Source of the DNA: Candidatus Hydrothermota bacterium
GTDB lineage: Bacteria; Hydrothermota; Hydrothermia; B15-G9; DRBW01
DNA length: 39,997 bases
Assembly: GCA_021158525.1 (NCBI GenBank)
Contig: JAGGUL010000104.1
Coordinates: 1-39,997, forward strand
Direction: 5' to 3'
The position numbers and the translations under genes were made by a program. The notes beneath the pieces are model-generated. The model had not been told where the DNA came from and did no database searches. It saw only the letters and a program-made list of their open reading frames with translations. Below, piece by piece: positions 6,264 to 13,349 of the stretch; the stretch's first letter is position 1; every line of letters begins with the position of its first letter.

Positions 6264-6336
6264 GGGGATGTAGCTCAGTTGGGAGAGCACAGGCTTTGCA
6301 AGCCTGGGGTCGGGGGTTCGAATCCCCCCATCTCCA
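6264..6336 (+). tRNA. tRNA-Ala (anticodon TGC)
   Basis: A complete 73-base cloverleaf. The acceptor stem GGGGATG pairs with CATCTCC (one G-T pair). The D arm is GCTC-AGTTGGGA-GAGC. The anticodon arm CAGGC-TTTGCAA-GCCTG gives anticodon TGC (GCN codons, Ala). A five-base variable region GGGTC precedes the T arm GGGGG-TTCGAAT-CCCCC, and the discriminator is A. The 3' CCA is not encoded (CTT follows), so it must be added by a nucleotidyltransferase. It stands alone, outside an rRNA operon. Confidence 0.98.
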
Positions 6337-6397
6337 CTTTAAGGACAGCAATATCCCCCTCCTGCTTCGTTCATTCCCCTGTTACCTCAGTGATTTT

Positions 6398-6878: not shown

Positions 6879-8519
6879 CTATGGCGTTCCGCAGGGGTGG
6901 GAAGAACAGTGGAGAGTGTCTCCCGTCGGGTCAGGACCACATCCGGGATAAGGGGAAGGAGGCTCAGGACCTCCTGAATACAGGAAATCAGACAGATAGG
7001 TCAGATCGCTGTAGTTCACCTGACCGTCATCGTTCAGGTCGGCGGCATCAAGACAGGCCGGACTGAAACCTCCTCCATAAAGGTAATTGGCGGTGAGCAC
7101 GAGGTCAACGGGATTAACGATGAAATCGCCGCTGACATCTCCCCTGATAAAATTCGATTCTGAAGGAGCGCCGGGTATGCCGTACAGAAATGCTTTTCCG
7201 CTGTAACTGTCGGCCCCCATGGCGCCGGCCAGGAAATCGCCATTTCCATCGCCGTTTACGTCTCCCGCTCCGCCCACGGAATAGCCCAGAAGGTATCCCG
7301 ACCCCCCTCCGACCATAGCCGTATCGAGGGTAAGTCCACTCCCGTCCGAGATATATAAATAAACTTTTCCTGCATCGGCACCGCCAGAATCATCTCCGTC
7401 AGCGCCTATCACCAGGTCGTCATATCCATTGTCATCTATATCTCCAGCGCCTGCCACGCTGTATCCAAAGCGGATAGAATCCCAGGAAGAGGTTATCTGA
7501 GCGTCGGGAATGGAATCCATGGGCGACCCCCCATAGAAGACATAGACTTTCCCACTCTCGCCGGAATATCCGTAGGCACCGACAACCACGTCACTGTACC
7601 CATCGCCGTTCAAATCCCCTGCCCCCGAAAGCGACCAGCCGAAATAACTGTAGGCTGTCTCCCCCACGAGGATCAGATCGGGCAGGGTGTCCATATCCGG
7701 TCCACCGAAGAAAACATAGGCCCTGCCCACATTGAGATTGGCCTGATAATCGAAACCGTAAGCTCCTATGATCAGGTCATCATAACCATCCCCATTCAGA
7801 TCGCCAGCCCCGCTGACCGCACGGCCGAATCTCTCCCCCTCCGTCTCGCCGGTGAGGATCAGGTCAGGCAGGGTATCTATGTCGGTCCCACCAAAGAAAA
7901 CATAAGCCCTGCCCACGTTTTCCAGCGTGTCCCCACCGGAGATCAAATCGTACTTATAGGCCCCGACGACAAAATCTCCGTAGCCGTCCCCGTTGAGATC
8001 GCCCGCCCCCGATACGGATATCCCGAAATAGTCCTTTTCCCTTTCCCCGTGAAACACAAGATCGGGAACAGAATCCATTGAGGGCCCACCGAGATAAAGG
8101 CAAGCCTTTCCCGCCCGCAGCCCAGCATCGGAATTGAAATGGGCACCTATGATGACATCGGAATAGCCATCTCCGTTGACATCGCCCGCACAGGATACAG
8201 AAACGCCAAGAAAATCGCCAGGGTTCCCGACGAAGGTCAGATCGGGAACTGCGTCGGGAGGATAACTGCCGAGATAAAGGTAGACTTTGCCGGCACTGGT
8301 CCCACCGTCGTCATTGGCATCGGCTCCAACAAGGAAATCGGCGTAACCATCGCCGTTAACATCACCAGCTTCGGAAACGAAAATGCCGAATTGATCTCCC
8401 GAACTCTCTCCGCTCAACGACAAAAAAAGCTCAACCCCCTCGGCGCGAGCCCAGGCCAGAAATGACAATAGCAACAATCCTATATTAAAGAAGCCCTTCC
8501 TCATTTCCGTTTTCTTCAT
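6879..8519 (-). CDS. Secreted FG-GAP beta-propeller protein with C-terminal dockerin
   Basis: About 546 residues from ATG 8519 (the frame also opens at TTG 8534, and another ATG lies at 8504). A signal peptide (FFNIGLLLLSFLAWARA) is followed by seven copies of an FG-GAP/integrin-alpha repeat with the calcium-loop core GD(V/L)NGDGYxDxxxGA (copies six and seven vary), enough for one seven-bladed propeller. A type I dockerin-like module follows at about residues 460-525: its first loop GDVSGDFIVNPVD is degenerate and its second, ADLNDDGQVNYSD, is good. A Pro/Cys-rich tail of about 30 residues with four Cys ends the protein. Dockerins dock to cohesins in cellulosomes, but this 'dockerin plus GGP linker' form is also common in surface proteins of FCB-type lineages without cellulosomes. 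Binding partners are unknown. None of the candidate starts has a clear Shine-Dalgarno sequence. Confidence 0.87.
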   Translation of the reverse strand: MKKTEMRKGFFNIGLLLLSFLAWARAEGVELFLSLSGESSGDQFGIFVSEAGDVNGDGYADFLVGADANDDGGTSAGKVYLYLGSYPPDAVPDLTFVGNPGDFLGVSVSCAGDVNGDGYSDVIIGAHFNSDAGLRAGKACLYLGGPSMDSVPDLVFHGEREKDYFGISVSGAGDLNGDGYGDFVVGAYKYDLISGGDTLENVGRAYVFFGGTDIDTLPDLILTGETEGERFGRAVSGAGDLNGDGYDDLIIGAYGFDYQANLNVGRAYVFFGGPDMDTLPDLILVGETAYSYFGWSLSGAGDLNGDGYSDVVVGAYGYSGESGKVYVFYGGSPMDSIPDAQITSSWDSIRFGYSVAGAGDIDDNGYDDLVIGADGDDSGGADAGKVYLYISDGSGLTLDTAMVGGGSGYLLGYSVGGAGDVNGDGNGDFLAGAMGADSYSGKAFLYGIPGAPSESNFIRGDVSGDFIVNPVDLVLTANYLYGGGFSPACLDAADLNDDGQVNYSDLTYLSDFLYSGGPEPPSPYPGCGPDPTGDTLHCSSHPCGTP

Positions 8520-8521
8520 AT

Positions 8522-8550
8522 AAATTAATGGCAAGGGGACTTATTGTCAA
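8522..8550 (-). promoter_or_regulatory. Putative promoter of the FG-GAP gene, abutting its start
   Basis: Minus-strand TTGACA (8550-8545), 17 bases, TAATTT (8527-8522). The implied start, near 8515, lies just downstream of the ATG at 8519 and about 11 nt before the ATG at 8504. Either translation starts at 8504 with a very short leader or another promoter is used. The -10 is only a four-of-six match. Confidence 0.4.
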
Positions 8551-8557
8551 TAATAGT

Positions 8558-8586
8558 TTGAAAAGAAGTTGAGGCGGGCATAAAAT
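8558..8586 (+). promoter_or_regulatory. Promoter of the nucleotidyltransferase-egsA operon
   Basis: TTGAAA (8558-8563), 17 bases, TAAAAT (8581-8586) predicts a start near 8593 and a 17-nt leader that contains the strong AGGAGG (8598-8603) six bases before GTG 8610. Confidence 0.7.
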
Positions 8587-8609
8587 AAGAAACGGAAAGG
8601 AGGCTCATT

Positions 8610-9329
8610 GTGAAGGCGGTTTTTCTGGCAGCCGGTCTGGGGAAAAGGCTCCATCCCATTACCCTTAAAGTGCCAAAGGGCTTGATAGAGATAGAAGGCA
8701 AAACCCTCCTCGAGCGCGCCATTGAATCCCTTGAAAAATATACCGACACAGAGAAAATAATCTTTGTAACCGGCCACGGGGGTAACCTCATAAAAAATAA
8801 GTTCGGCACTGATAGCCTATTCCTCTACGTGGACAACCCTCACTACGAGGCCAGGAACAATATCTACTCCCTTTACCTGGCTTTTCCCCACATCGGCGAT
8901 GCTCCTTTCCTGTTATTCAACTCCGACGTCCTTTTCCATCCTGCAATACTCGAAATGGCCCTCGAGAATGGCCCCGACACCTTTCTCATTATCGACAACA
9001 CGAAGGAACTCGGCGAGGAGGAGATGAAAGTCATAATCGAGGGAGACAGAATCCGGGATATCTCCAAAGCTCTGGACCCGAGCCTCTCCCACGGCGAATA
9101 CATAGGGATATCCAAGTTCTCCCGGAAGGGGGGGATGGTCCTTAGAAGGCACATAGAAGACCTGATAAGAAAGGAAAAATACGAGGAATTTTACGAGGCG
9201 GGCATCCGGCTGATGCTCGATGAACATCCGGTGATGGCCACTTACACCGGGGGCCTGCCCTGGATAGAGATAGACGACCACAGGGACCTTGAAGAGGCAA
9301 AGGAGATGGCGAGATTATGGGATTTATAA
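8610..9329 (+). CDS. LicC/IPCT-like sugar- or polyol-phosphate nucleotidyltransferase
   Basis: A 239-residue GT-A-fold nucleotidyltransferase that would transfer a nucleoside monophosphate (likely CMP) to a phosphorylated alcohol. The signature loop LAAGLGKRLHPIT lies at residues 6-18 with the following Lys in VPKGLIE. The metal-binding Asp is D106 in LLFNSDVLF, and a segment at about 77-91 (NPHYEARNNIYSLYLA) resembles phosphocholine cytidylyltransferase (LicC) and inositol-1-phosphate cytidylyltransferase. It starts at GTG behind a strong AGGAGG. It overlaps the glycerol-1-phosphate dehydrogenase gene by 13 nt, which suggests that G1P, or something made from it, is the substrate; that is inference from context. 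Alternatives are an NDP-sugar or phosphocholine enzyme. Confidence 0.83.
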   Translation: MKAVFLAAGLGKRLHPITLKVPKGLIEIEGKTLLERAIESLEKYTDTEKIIFVTGHGGNLIKNKFGTDSLFLYVDNPHYEARNNIYSLYLAFPHIGDAPFLLFNSDVLFHPAILEMALENGPDTFLIIDNTKELGEEEMKVIIEGDRIRDISKALDPSLSHGEYIGISKFSRKGGMVLRRHIEDLIRKEKYEEFYEAGIRLMLDEHPVMATYTGGLPWIEIDDHRDLEEAKEMARLWDL

Positions 9330-10372
9330 AGAGATCGCTCGACATCCCCGTTTTTCTGGAAATCGGGGAAAGGACGAGCCACGACGTTCCGGCCATCGTA
9401 TCCAGGTGGAACCTCAAGTTCTGGAAAATCCTGGTCCTCGACGATGACATAACGAGAGACCTGGCCGGACTGAGGATACTGAGGGACTTCGTCTCCGATG
9501 GTGCTTCCTGCCAGGAGGTTGTCGTGGAAAATTCCACCTATGAAGAGGTGGAAAAAATAAGAAAGATATTCCACGAGGGTCTGTTTGACCTTGTTGTCTC
9601 GGTGGGAGGCGGCAAAGTGATCGATGTGGGGAAAATGGTCGCCTATATGGAGAATACGAATTTTATCAGCGTGCCTACCGTCCCCTCTAACGACAGCATA
9701 TCCTCTCCCATTGCTGTCATCACCCACGACGGCCACAAACGAAGTCTCGGGGCCAAAATGCCCACGGGTGTCATCGTGGACCTCTCGATAATCCGCAATG
9801 CACCTCTCAGATACATAAAAAGCGGCATATCCGATGTCATCTCGAATCTGTCCGCTGTGAGCGACTGGATACTCGCCCATGAGATGGGAAAAGACAGATA
9901 CGATACCTTCGCCGCCATGATCTCCGAGTCATCGGCCCTCAATCTGCTCGGGGCCGCAGACAACGAGATAAGGGATCCCGAATTCCTTCAGGTGCTTCTC
10001 AAGGCACTTATTCTCAGCGGAATAGCCATGGGGGTGGCAGGAACCTCCAGACCCTCATCGGGCAGCGAGCACGAGATCTCCCATGCCATCGATACACTCT
10101 ATCCGAACCGTGCCCTCCACGGCGAACAGGTCGGCGTTGCAAGCCTCTTCACCATGTACCTCCAGAAAAACCCCCATTATGAAAAAGTTCGAAAGCTCTT
10201 CGAAAAGCTCGGCCTCCCCAAAAAAACCGAGCACATCAACGTATCCAGAAAGGAGTTTATCGAGTCGGTCCTCTATGCTCCGAGGACCAGGCCCGGAAGG
10301 TATACCATCCTGGAACACCTCGATCTAAAGCCGCCCGAAATAGAAAAGATACTGGAAGAGATCGATCTCTAA
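9317..10372 (+). CDS. egsA: sn-glycerol-1-phosphate dehydrogenase (archaeal type)
   Basis: A 351-residue iron-type alcohol dehydrogenase superfamily enzyme that reduces dihydroxyacetone phosphate to sn-glycerol-1-phosphate with NAD(P)H. The dinucleotide-binding motif SVGGGKVIDVGK lies at residues 95-106, followed by the family-specific SVPTVPSNDSISSPIAV (118-134). The metal ligands expected for G1PDH are present: D173 (GISDVISN), H252 (GSEHEISHAID) and H268 (LHGEQVG). G1P is the backbone of archaeal membrane lipids; bacterial homologues are known in Firmicutes (AraM) and in some FCB-group candidate phyla. It is the second gene of a two-gene operon and is closed by the hairpin at 10393-10418. 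No prenyl transferase for archaeal-type lipids is visible in this window. Confidence 0.9.
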   Translation: MGFIKRSLDIPVFLEIGERTSHDVPAIVSRWNLKFWKILVLDDDITRDLAGLRILRDFVSDGASCQEVVVENSTYEEVEKIRKIFHEGLFDLVVSVGGGKVIDVGKMVAYMENTNFISVPTVPSNDSISSPIAVITHDGHKRSLGAKMPTGVIVDLSIIRNAPLRYIKSGISDVISNLSAVSDWILAHEMGKDRYDTFAAMISESSALNLLGAADNEIRDPEFLQVLLKALILSGIAMGVAGTSRPSSGSEHEISHAIDTLYPNRALHGEQVGVASLFTMYLQKNPHYEKVRKLFEKLGLPKKTEHINVSRKEFIESVLYAPRTRPGRYTILEHLDLKPPEIEKILEEIDL

Positions 10373-10392: not shown

Positions 10393-10418
10393 AAAGGGGG
10401 CATTTATGCCCCCTTTTC
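10393..10418. terminator. Bidirectional rho-independent terminator
   Basis: A perfect inverted repeat, AAAGGGGGCAT with ATGCCCCCTTT, around a tiny TT centre. It is followed by TTTTCGTTTTC on the plus strand and by TTTATTTTTTC on the minus strand. It sits between the convergent genes egsA and the FN3 lipoprotein and should serve both. Confidence 0.88.
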
Positions 10419-11612: not shown

Positions 11613-13349
11613 TTATGCTCCCATCCTTTTTCTCTTGGATCTGAGAAATTCAAGGAGCTCATCGAGCTCCATGGTGTTGAGCAGGTCGCCGGGCTCGAGC
11701 CACGCCCTTCGCGCCACCCCCACCCCGAGGACCATCATCCAGAGCTGTCCTATATTATGGGTATCGGTCCCAATGGAAAGTTTGACGCCTATTTCTTTTG
11801 CCCTCCTCGAATAGATATCGTTGAGGTCGAGCCTCTCGTAATAGGCGTTGATCTCGAGGGCGGTGCCCGTCTCGGCAGCCTTTTCTATGATCTTCTCCAC
11901 ATCGACCCTGTATCCCTCCCTGGTGGATATGAGCCGGCCCGTCGGATGAGCGATCACATGCACGTAGGGGTTTTCCATTGCCTTCAGGATTCGGGAAGTT
12001 GTGTCCTCGTTCTTGGACCATATATGGACAGCAGCCACCACGATGTCGAGCTCTCTGAGTATCTCATCGGGGTAATCGAGGGTGCCATCCTGGAGGATAT
12101 CGACCTCCGTCCCCATGAGCAGCTTAACGCCATCCAGGGTCTCGTTCAGCCGCTTTATCTCCCCCATCTTACGGAGAAGCCTCTCCACCTCAAGCCCACG
12201 GGCATATTTAACGCTCTGAGAGTGATCACACACGGCGATATAGCTGTAGCCCCTATCCTTTGCCCTACGGGCTATCTCCTCCAGCGTCGCTGTTCCATCG
12301 GAATATCTGGAGTGAACGTGAAGGTCCCCCTTGATGTCGGATAGCTCCACCAGTTCGGGCAGCCTGTTTTCATGGGCTGCTTCGATCTCTCCCCTGTCCT
12401 CTCTGAGCTCCGGTGGAATCCAGGGCAATCCGAGGGCACCATAAACCTCCTCCTCTGTCCTCCCGGCTATCATCTCGCTGCCCCTGAAAACTCCGTACTC
12501 CGAGATCTTCAACCCCCTTTCCTTGGCTATGGTCCTGAGGTGAATGTTATGGGCCCTAGAACCGGTGAAATACTGGAGAGCGGCGCCGTAGCTCTCCTCG
12601 GGGACCACTCTGAGGTCAACCTGATAGCGATCGTGAAAGATGACGGAACCTTTGGTCTCTCCCGCGGCGAGAACCCTTGTAACCCCGGGCAATTCAGTGA
12701 AATATCGGATTATCTCGCCTCCTCTGGTGCCCGTCACCAGAATGTCCAGGTCACCGACAGTCTCACGCATCCTCCTGAAGGACCCAGCGGGTGAAATAGC
12801 CTTGACCTCTTTCAATTTTTTCATGGATTCCAGTATGTCCTGCACAATGGGAAAGGCGAGGCCGAGCGGTATCCTCTCCTTCATCTTCTCGTAAAGCTCA
12901 AGGCCTTTCATTATGTTCTCTATCTTCTTGGCTCCCATGCCGGGGAGGGAGGCAAGAGACCCATCCTCGAGGACCCGCTTGAAGTCCTGCAGTGTTCTAA
13001 CTCCGAGCTTATCATAGGCCAGCTTCAGGGTTTTGGGGCCTATCCCCTGGACGTCGAGGAGATCGAGGAGCTCGGTCGGCACCTTTTCCATGACCTCTTC
13101 GTATCTCTTGATTTTTCCAGTCTCGAGGTATTCGGCGATCTTCTCGGCCATGCTCTTCCCTATCCCCGGGATCGATTCGAGTCCCTGAAGGCCCTTCTTC
13201 CTGAAGATCTCCTCTACTTCTTCAGGAAGGTCTCTCAGGACTCTGGACGCCTTTCTGTATGCCGAGACCCTGAAAGGATTTTCGCCGAGAAACTCAAGTC
13301 CATCGGCAATTTTATCGAAAATCTCGGATAGCTTCTTGTTCTTGCTCAT
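11613..13349 (-). CDS. polX: DNA polymerase X with C-terminal PHP domain
   Basis: A 578-residue family X polymerase/3'-5' exonuclease used in base-excision and gap repair. The N-terminal 8-kDa-like domain and helix-hairpin-helix motifs (SIPGIGKSMAEKI near 60, VQGIGPKTLKL near 100, LPGMGAKKIENI near 135) bind DNA. The nucleotidyl-transferase site has GS at 189-190, Asp200 and Asp202 (GDLDILV) and Asp245 (VDLRV). The C-terminal PHP metal site shows HVHSRYSDG (344-352), AVCDHS, AVH, AHPTGR and DTHN. Length matches bacterial PolX (about 570). GGGAGG stands five bases before the ATG. It lies 44 bases after the glycosyltransferase and has its own putative promoter. Confidence 0.96.
   Translation of the reverse strand: MSKNKKLSEIFDKIADGLEFLGENPFRVSAYRKASRVLRDLPEEVEEIFRKKGLQGLESIPGIGKSMAEKIAEYLETGKIKRYEEVMEKVPTELLDLLDVQGIGPKTLKLAYDKLGVRTLQDFKRVLEDGSLASLPGMGAKKIENIMKGLELYEKMKERIPLGLAFPIVQDILESMKKLKEVKAISPAGSFRRMRETVGDLDILVTGTRGGEIIRYFTELPGVTRVLAAGETKGSVIFHDRYQVDLRVVPEESYGAALQYFTGSRAHNIHLRTIAKERGLKISEYGVFRGSEMIAGRTEEEVYGALGLPWIPPELREDRGEIEAAHENRLPELVELSDIKGDLHVHSRYSDGTATLEEIARRAKDRGYSYIAVCDHSQSVKYARGLEVERLLRKMGEIKRLNETLDGVKLLMGTEVDILQDGTLDYPDEILRELDIVVAAVHIWSKNEDTTSRILKAMENPYVHVIAHPTGRLISTREGYRVDVEKIIEKAAETGTALEINAYYERLDLNDIYSRRAKEIGVKLSIGTDTHNIGQLWMMVLGVGVARRAWLEPGDLLNTMELDELLEFLRSKRKRMGA

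What the first reader, a model, noticed from the sequence alone, without database searches (positions are those of the whole stretch)
8610..10372. Archaeal-type G1P dehydrogenase coupled to a LicC/IPCT-like nucleotidyltransferase in a bacterium
The two genes overlap by 13 nt behind one good promoter and end at a strong terminator, so they form a closed two-step unit. G1PDH makes the glycerophosphate enantiomer typical of archaeal lipids. Together the enzymes could make a CDP-glycerol of G1P stereochemistry for a polymer, glycolipid or compatible solute, rather than for archaeal membrane lipids. All expected G1PDH metal ligands are present. The product is inference.
Basis: partly seen in the sequence, partly recalled or inferred. 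Interest (0 to 1): 0.58.

Follow-up and report, generated by a model that had tools for sequence, protein, structure and literature searches.

The report
Bacterial mirror-image CDP-glycerol gene pair
Two adjacent genes in a bacterium, and in many others such as Streptomyces, look like a small assembly line that makes the mirror-image ("archaeal") form of glycerol phosphate and loads it onto a carrier nucleotide, probably to decorate the cell surface; this would mean that the first gene is not a sign of archaeal membranes.

Summary
In detail: 8610-9329 encodes a LicC/PntC-like nucleotidyltransferase and 9317-10372 a glycerol-1-phosphate dehydrogenase (G1PDH); the genes overlap by 13 nt. The pair is widespread: 16 of 147 genomes of the phylum have it, and 76 of 80 named G1PDH loci (mostly Streptomyces) carry the nucleotidyltransferase next to the G1PDH. 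A third gene, a CDP-alcohol phosphotransferase, adjoins the pair in many relatives; the window's genome has its closest counterpart unlinked, inside a glycosyltransferase cluster. GGGP synthase is absent from 18 of 18 sampled pair genomes outside the phylum and 8 of 16 inside it, while 50 of 52 unpaired G1PDH genomes have it. So the pair works without archaeal-lipid enzymes. Best reading: DHAP -> sn-glycerol-1-phosphate -> CDP-1-glycerol -> glycerol-1-phosphate on a surface lipid or glycan, by the logic of LicC and PntC modules. A 2021 paper calls CDP-1-glycerol likely absent from bacteria. Substrate and product are inferred, not shown.

The parts
8610..9329 (+). LicC/PntC-like nucleotidyltransferase (P0001, 239 aa); proposed CTP:sn-glycerol-1-phosphate cytidylyltransferase
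   Evidence: Pfam NTP_transf_3; closest PDB folds PntC 6pd2, LicC 1jyk, MurU 4y7u, IPCT 4jd0; R13, K23 and K153 align with PntC R15, K25 and K153
9317..10372 (+). sn-glycerol-1-phosphate dehydrogenase (P0002, 351 aa)
   Evidence: Fe-ADH_2 1.1e-33; NCBIfam G1PDH 1.6e-92, below its cut-off; PDB folds 3ce9, then G1PDH 4rfl/4rgq and 5fb3; metal ligands present
9317..9329 (+). 13-nt overlap of the two genes
   Evidence: the same 13-nt overlap in 74 of 76 named pair loci and in Streptomyces fungicidicus, but not in all relatives of the window
8596..8603 (+). Shine-Dalgarno-like AAAGGAGG before the first gene
   Evidence: read from the sequence
9299..9305 (+). Shine-Dalgarno-like AAAGGAG before the second gene
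   Evidence: read from the sequence
8558..8586 (+). sigma-70-like promoter candidate TTGAAA-17-TAAAAT
   Evidence: the number of such sites equals the shuffle expectation
10393..10416 (.). terminator-like hairpin of 10 pairs between convergent genes
   Evidence: the number of such sites equals the shuffle expectation

Best explanation
The two genes are the front half of a head-group module. Step 1: the G1PDH reduces dihydroxyacetone phosphate with NAD(P)H to sn-glycerol-1-phosphate (G1P). Step 2: the LicC/PntC-like enzyme joins G1P to CTP, giving CDP-1-glycerol (the mirror image of the CDP-3-glycerol of TagD) and pyrophosphate. Step 3: a membrane CDP-alcohol phosphotransferase, encoded next to the pair in many relatives and probably at G000:C18:9969-10340 in this genome, moves glycerol-1-phosphate from CDP-1-glycerol onto a lipid-linked glycan, glycolipid or lipid bound for the cell surface. 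Shown: the gene pair, its conservation across phyla, the catalytic residues, and independence from GGGP synthase. Inferred: the substrate of step 2, the partner and direction of step 3, the acceptor. In this organism the same G1P pool may also feed GGGP synthase.
For: Pair conserved: all 16 phylum genomes with a close nucleotidyltransferase (14 at E<=1e-90 plus 2 cut by contig ends) have it beside the G1PDH; 76 of 80 named G1PDH loci have it adjacent, mostly Streptomyces but also Kineosporia, Solirubrobacteraceae and Kerfeldbacteria; the 80 were the best 80 of a capped scan. Third gene: CDP-alcohol phosphotransferase contiguous with the pair in family f18, Kerfeldbacteria and Streptomyces; across 147 genomes the 11 stand-alone matches at E<=1e-16 to the f18 protein all lie in pair genomes, the window's genome included; the two others at that level are long fused IPCT-DIPPS-like frames in non-pair genomes. 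Independence from archaeal lipids: GGGP synthase in 0 of 18 pair genomes outside the phylum, 8 of 16 inside, against 50 of 52 unpaired G1PDH genomes (Fisher p 6e-5, not corrected for relatedness). Chemistry: R13, K23 and K153 match residues whose alanine mutants nearly inactivate PntC (PMC6697681); the residue that contacts the amine in PntC and its LicC equivalent (E104/D105) is N104 in 87 of 87 paired enzymes with that column (mostly Streptomyces), D in an aminotransferase-linked relative and M in IPCT-like ones. Module logic: related nucleotidyltransferases sit with CDP-alcohol phosphotransferases and/or other head-group makers such as PEP mutase. Surface context: glycosyltransferases and Wzz around the C18 partner, flippases beside the f3 and Kerfeldbacteria pairs, glycosyltransferase and ABC transporter in Streptomyces.
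Against: No enzyme assay exists. N104 is not exclusive to the pair (9 of 17 others have it). The dehydrogenase tree does not unite the paired forms (7 changes, weak backbone) and the nucleotidyltransferase tree needs 4 changes. The partner in this genome is unlinked and only 39% identical over about 120 residues; no such partner at E<=1e-12 in the four f3 pair genomes or in G021. In Streptomyces the downstream CDP-alcohol protein did not match my catalytic pattern; the upstream DUF5941 protein did. The window's genome does hold GGGP synthase and a DGGGP-synthase-like gene. CpgD, a cytidylyltransferase of the same broad family, did not use glycerol-1-phosphate (PMC12275187). The f18 neighbours beyond the triad do not look like surface genes by eye.
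Confidence: 0.63

Rival explanations
1. The G1PDH serves archaeal-type ether lipids: G1P goes to GGGP synthase and DGGGP synthase encoded elsewhere, and the nucleotidyltransferase next to it is incidental or does a separate job.
For: The genome has GGGP synthase (C98:10508-11155, TIGR01769 above cut-off) and a UbiA protein whose best models are DGGGP synthases though below cut-off; 58 of 68 G1PDH genomes of the phylum have GGGP synthase; G046 and G047 keep G1PDH and GGGP synthase without the nucleotidyltransferase.
Against: The adjacency recurs in Actinomycetota and Kerfeldbacteria without GGGP synthase and in f18/f19; CarS not found. It may be true in addition to the main reading rather than instead of it.
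Confidence: 0.15
2. The pair makes a soluble phosphodiester solute: CDP-1-glycerol is joined to inositol-1-phosphate or glycerol phosphate to give glycerophosphoinositol or diglycerol phosphate.
For: PMC8262930 cites an unidentified Archaeoglobus activity preferring Gro1P and archaeal glycerophosphoinositol synthesis; G064 has, two genes beyond the pair, a protein that looks by eye like inositol-phosphate synthase; this genome has an inositol-phosphate synthase and an IPCT-like gene.
Against: The likely partner phosphotransferase of this genome sits among glycosyltransferases and Wzz; flippase and ABC-transporter neighbours point to the cell surface.
Confidence: 0.12
3. The nucleotidyltransferase activates something else (inositol-1-phosphate, phosphocholine, a phosphonate or a sugar phosphate), the dehydrogenase making a different polyol phosphate or phosphonate alcohol.
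For: Sequence alone does not fix the substrate; its closest fold is PntC; relatives occur in phosphonate loci.
Against: No PEP mutase above cut-off in this genome (26.2 against 31.5 bits); IPCT-like gene present separately; dehydrogenase is G1PDH by family and fold.
Confidence: 0.1

Closest known systems
LicC, CTP:phosphocholine cytidylyltransferase (PDB 1jyk)
   Same: fold (TM 0.81 by query); activation of a small head-group phosphate for cell-surface transfer; conserved N-terminal loop and metal-site Asp
   Different: head-group contact D105 is N104 here; partner is G1PDH, not choline import and kinase; next step is a CDP-alcohol phosphotransferase rather than LicD
PntC, CTP:2-aminoethylphosphonate cytidylyltransferase (PDB 6pd1/6pd2, PMC6697681, passages read)
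   Same: best fold match (TM 0.89 by query); catalytic R15/K25/K153 conserved as R13/K23/K153
   Different: head-group contact E104 is N104; no PEP mutase above cut-off in the genome
CpgD, phosphoglycerate cytidylyltransferase (PMC12275187, part 1 of 4 of the text read)
   Same: same broad cytidylyltransferase family; makes CDP-glycerate for a lipid head group
   Different: does not use glycerol-1-phosphate; no dehydrogenase partner reported in the part read
IPCT-DIPPS (PDB 4jd0, 4mnd)
   Same: nucleotidyltransferase plus CDP-alcohol phosphotransferase logic
   Different: a separate IPCT-like gene is present in this genome; P0001 lies outside that clade and scores 71.9 against a 580-bit cut-off
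AraM/PcrB of Bacillus subtilis (AraM 9h4x)
   Same: bacterial G1PDH
   Different: feeds a GGGP-type ether lipid; AraM is a more distant match than archaeal G1PDH
TagD and Cps3B/Cps7B glycerol-phosphate cytidylyltransferases (PMC8262930)
   Same: CDP-glycerol forming
   Different: different superfamily (TagD assignment recalled); Cps3B/Cps7B prefer Gro3P; no G1PDH partner
Streptomyces teichoic-type synteny block with araM, tagGH, GT2, CDP-alcohol PT and sugar-phosphate nucleotidyltransferase (PMC13118837)
   Same: the same kinds of genes as in L035
   Different: reported as synteny only in the passage seen; no pathway or CDP-1-glycerol proposed there

Membership tests
G1PDH (EgsA) | Fe-ADH_2 domain and G1PDH as the best family model | tested here: met
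G1PDH (EgsA) | NCBIfam equivalog cut-off (413 bits) | tested here: not met
   310 bits; filed as a bacterial G1PDH homologue, not as the archaeal equivalog
G1PDH (EgsA) | metal ligands Asp/His/His (identity as ligands recalled) | tested here: met
   D173, H252, H268 invariant in 51 of 51; aligned with 4rgq
G1PDH (EgsA) | fold | tested here: met
   pLDDT 92.7; top PDB matches 3ce9 then 4rfl/4rgq
G1PDH (EgsA) | DHAP reduction to sn-glycerol-1-phosphate | not testable with these tools
   needs an assay
LicC/PntC-like cytidylyltransferase | fold | tested here: met
   pLDDT 94.8; PntC and LicC among top matches
LicC/PntC-like cytidylyltransferase | motif GXG(T/S)RX4-8PK | tested here: inconclusive
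   GLGKR...PK: Lys in place of T/S, the rest present
LicC/PntC-like cytidylyltransferase | catalytic Arg, Lys, Lys | tested here: met
   R13, K23, K153
LicC/PntC-like cytidylyltransferase | CTP and head-group specificity | not testable with these tools
   needs an assay
PntC | phosphonate context (PEP mutase) | tested here: not met
   26.2 bits against cut-off 31.5 in the own genome
IPCT | clade and model score of IPCT | tested here: not met
TagD-type glycerol-3-phosphate cytidylyltransferase | cytidylyltransferase-like (HIGH) Pfam domain (family assignment recalled) | tested here: not met
   only NTP_transf_3, NTP_transferase and IspD hits
CDP-alcohol phosphotransferase partner (C18) | catalytic motif DxxDGxxA(R/K)...GxxxDxxxD (motif recalled) | tested here: met
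   DCIDGKLARLQNRQSAVGYLFDRLFD
archaeal membrane-lipid pathway | GGGP synthase, DGGGP synthase and CarS in the genome | tested here: inconclusive
   GGGP synthase found, DGGGP-synthase-like below cut-off, CarS not found

The most novel reading that the evidence does not exclude
A widespread bacterial Kennedy-type route to sn-glycerol-1-phosphate head groups. Phosphatidylglycerol and lipoteichoic acid carry glycerol-1-phosphate, normally obtained by way of G3P and PG. Here the same enantiomer would be made directly by a G1PDH, activated as CDP-1-glycerol and transferred by a CDP-alcohol phosphotransferase to a membrane lipid or lipid-linked glycan. Bacterial G1PDH would then in large part be a cell-surface enzyme, not a relic or import of archaeal membranes.
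Probability: 0.35. Interest if true: 0.8.

Novelty: new variant of a known kind. Interest (0 to 1): 0.63.

Why it matters
G1PDH in bacteria is usually read as capacity for archaeal-type lipids and is used in arguments about the lipid divide and LUCA (PMC6431249, PMC5059525, passages read). A conserved G1PDH-cytidylyltransferase unit in bacteria without GGGP synthase gives G1PDH a second job and would remove part of that evidence. [quoted passage not shown] this pair is a direct candidate source of CDP-1-glycerol, and Streptomyces makes it testable in the laboratory.

Tried and rejected
IPCT: rejected, a separate IPCT-like gene exists and P0001 is outside its clade. Phosphonate activation: rejected for this genome, no PEP mutase above cut-off. 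Glycerol dehydrogenase GldA: rejected by family and fold ranking. A 13-nt overlap as a sign of common descent: not claimed; f18 pairs abut without overlap and other pairs differ. A single origin of paired G1PDH: not supported by the tree. Gly145 in the dehydrogenase (21 of 23 paired, 5 of 28 unpaired) is only a lead. Catabolic use of imported G1P: PMC12718374 read in two reference-list passages only; nothing bearing on the pair was found.

Searches for prior description in the held open-access library: plus 34 on CDP-inositol. Searches (cytidylyltransferase + iron-containing alcohol dehydrogenase + CDP-alcohol phosphatidyltransferase; Streptomyces + CDP-glycerol + glycerol-1-phosphate) gave 0 papers. 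The Streptomyces synteny itself is in print (PMC13118837). Most subscription journals are not held.

Full report
What is there. Two genes on the + strand, 8610-9329 (239 aa, GTG start) and 9317-10372 (351 aa), overlap by 13 nt. Upstream is a divergent FG-GAP/dockerin gene, downstream a convergent gene of no Pfam family. A sigma-70-like promoter and a hairpin terminator can be drawn, but their number equals the shuffle expectation. Against the same-genus genome G021 dN/dS is 0.11 and 0.04.

The dehydrogenase. Fe-ADH_2 at 1.1e-33. The best NCBIfam model is NAD(P)-dependent G1PDH, 1.6e-92, 310 bits under a cut-off of 413; glycerol dehydrogenase is 63 orders of magnitude weaker. By sequence and by predicted fold (pLDDT 92.7) the nearest solved structures are 3ce9, a Clostridium protein deposited as glycerol dehydrogenase, then archaeal G1PDH 4rfl/4rgq and 5fb3; Bacillus AraM 9h4x ranks lower. 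D173, H252 and H268 are invariant in 51 of 51 homologues. It is the only match in its genome.

The nucleotidyltransferase. The predicted fold (pLDDT 94.8) is nearest to PntC, then LicC, MurU and IPCT. R13, K23 and K153 correspond to R15, K25 and K153 of Tde-PntC, whose alanine mutants nearly lose activity (PMC6697681, passages read; alignment). PntC E104 and LicC D105 lie by the head-group amine in that paper; here the position is Asn, in 87 of 87 paired enzymes with the column filled (one fragment lacks it), most of them Streptomyces; 9 of 17 unpaired relatives also have Asn, an aminotransferase-linked one Asp, IPCT-like ones Met. An uncharged head group fits Asn; this is inference. The matching of LicC D105 to this column rests on the paper and my reading of the motif, not on a structural alignment.

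The pair is conserved. In the phylum 68 of 147 genomes have the dehydrogenase. A close nucleotidyltransferase (E<=1e-90, or cut by a contig end) occurs in 16, each time beside the dehydrogenase (coordinates). The four without are two WOR-3 MAGs, one Kerfeldbacteria contig that begins inside the dehydrogenase, and an Aenigmatarchaeota archaeon whose G1PDH is followed at once by a gene that contains the GGGP synthase match of that genome. The set is dominated by Streptomyces, so 76 is not 76 independent cases. WOR-3 titles among the hits suggest that the window's phylum is candidate division WOR-3, but this was not established.

The third gene. A CDP-alcohol phosphotransferase precedes the pair in family f18, follows it in Kerfeldbacteria, and flanks it on both sides in Streptomyces, where the upstream one is the DUF5941 protein. 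The window's genome has four such genes; the one on C18 is the best counterpart of the f18 protein (39% over about 120 residues), has the full catalytic motif and lies among GT1/GT4, GT2, GT9 and Wzz-like genes. Across 147 genomes, the stand-alone matches at E<=1e-16 number 11, all in pair genomes; two more at that level (G122, G076) are long frames, taken as the fused IPCT-DIPPS type, in non-pair genomes; at E<=1e-12, 25 genomes match, and the four f3 pair genomes and G021 have none. In f3 the gene just upstream of the pair is a polysaccharide flippase.

Separation from archaeal lipids. GGGP synthase is found in 8 of 16 pair genomes and 50 of 52 unpaired G1PDH genomes of the phylum (Fisher p 6e-5, uncorrected; seven of the eight negatives are one family). 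Of 20 further genomes tested, the 18 with the pair (one, L109, inferred from its broken contig) have none, and the two without it, an archaeon and a WOR-3 MAG, both have one (completeness of these genomes not given). G046 and G047 keep G1PDH and GGGP synthase and lack the nucleotidyltransferase. So the two uses of G1P come apart in both directions. The window's genome has both: GGGP synthase above cut-off, a UbiA protein closest to DGGGP synthases, two PlsY, no CarS match. Its single G1PDH probably serves both; this is inference.

Module logic. Relatives of P0001 in other bacteria sit beside a CDP-alcohol phosphotransferase and an aminotransferase (Sulfitobacter), a CDP-alcohol phosphotransferase (Pseudomonas), or PEP mutase and phosphonopyruvate decarboxylase (Rhizobium); a Roseomonas locus shows no such partner. 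In the window's module the head-group maker would be G1PDH. The paper on PntC describes LicC as mirroring the Kennedy pathway.

Prior knowledge. [quoted passage not shown] PMC13118837 (two passages) reports the Streptomyces synteny of araM with tagGH, GT2, a CDP-alcohol phosphatidyltransferase and a sugar-phosphate nucleotidyltransferase, without a pathway. PMC12275187 (part 1 of 4 read) shows CpgD making CDP-glycerate and not using glycerol-1-phosphate. PMC7852524 and PMC6431249 (passages) treat bacterial G1PDH and GGGP synthase as archaeal-lipid capacity. I found no paper that proposes a G1PDH-fed CDP-1-glycerol module (searches listed under Tried and rejected).

Verdict. Enzyme specificity, the partner in this genome and the product remain unproved.

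Noticed in passing
G000:C98:10508-11155 (L094), G000:C103:34592-35308 (L182), G000:C9 and C84 (L186, L187): The window's genome has GGGP synthase, a DGGGP-synthase-like UbiA and two PlsY together with G1PDH: capacity for mixed archaeal and bacterial lipids. In the phylum 58 of 68 G1PDH genomes also have GGGP synthase, unlike the Cloacimonetes MAGs of PMC7852524, which lack G1PDH.
   Followed up: partly
window 9749-9751 (Gly145 of the dehydrogenase): Gly145 occurs in 21 of 23 paired and 5 of 28 unpaired dehydrogenases; three of the five are from family f12, and two of those three genomes carry a paired-type nucleotidyltransferase at another locus.
   Followed up: partly
L086, L087 (G001, G002): Nucleotidyltransferases with the paired-type signature sit between two genes that look like alkaline-phosphatase-superfamily enzymes (by eye, no family search), apart from the G1PDH of the same genomes.
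   Followed up: no
window 6264-6337 +: tRNA-Ala (TGC), the only tRNA found in the window.
   Followed up: no
window 6879-8534 -: FG-GAP repeat protein with a dockerin-like C-terminal stretch, 551 aa; a similar gene lies at the same place in G021.
   Followed up: no
window 11613-13349 -: DNA polymerase X-type protein with helix-hairpin-helix and PHP domains.
   Followed up: no
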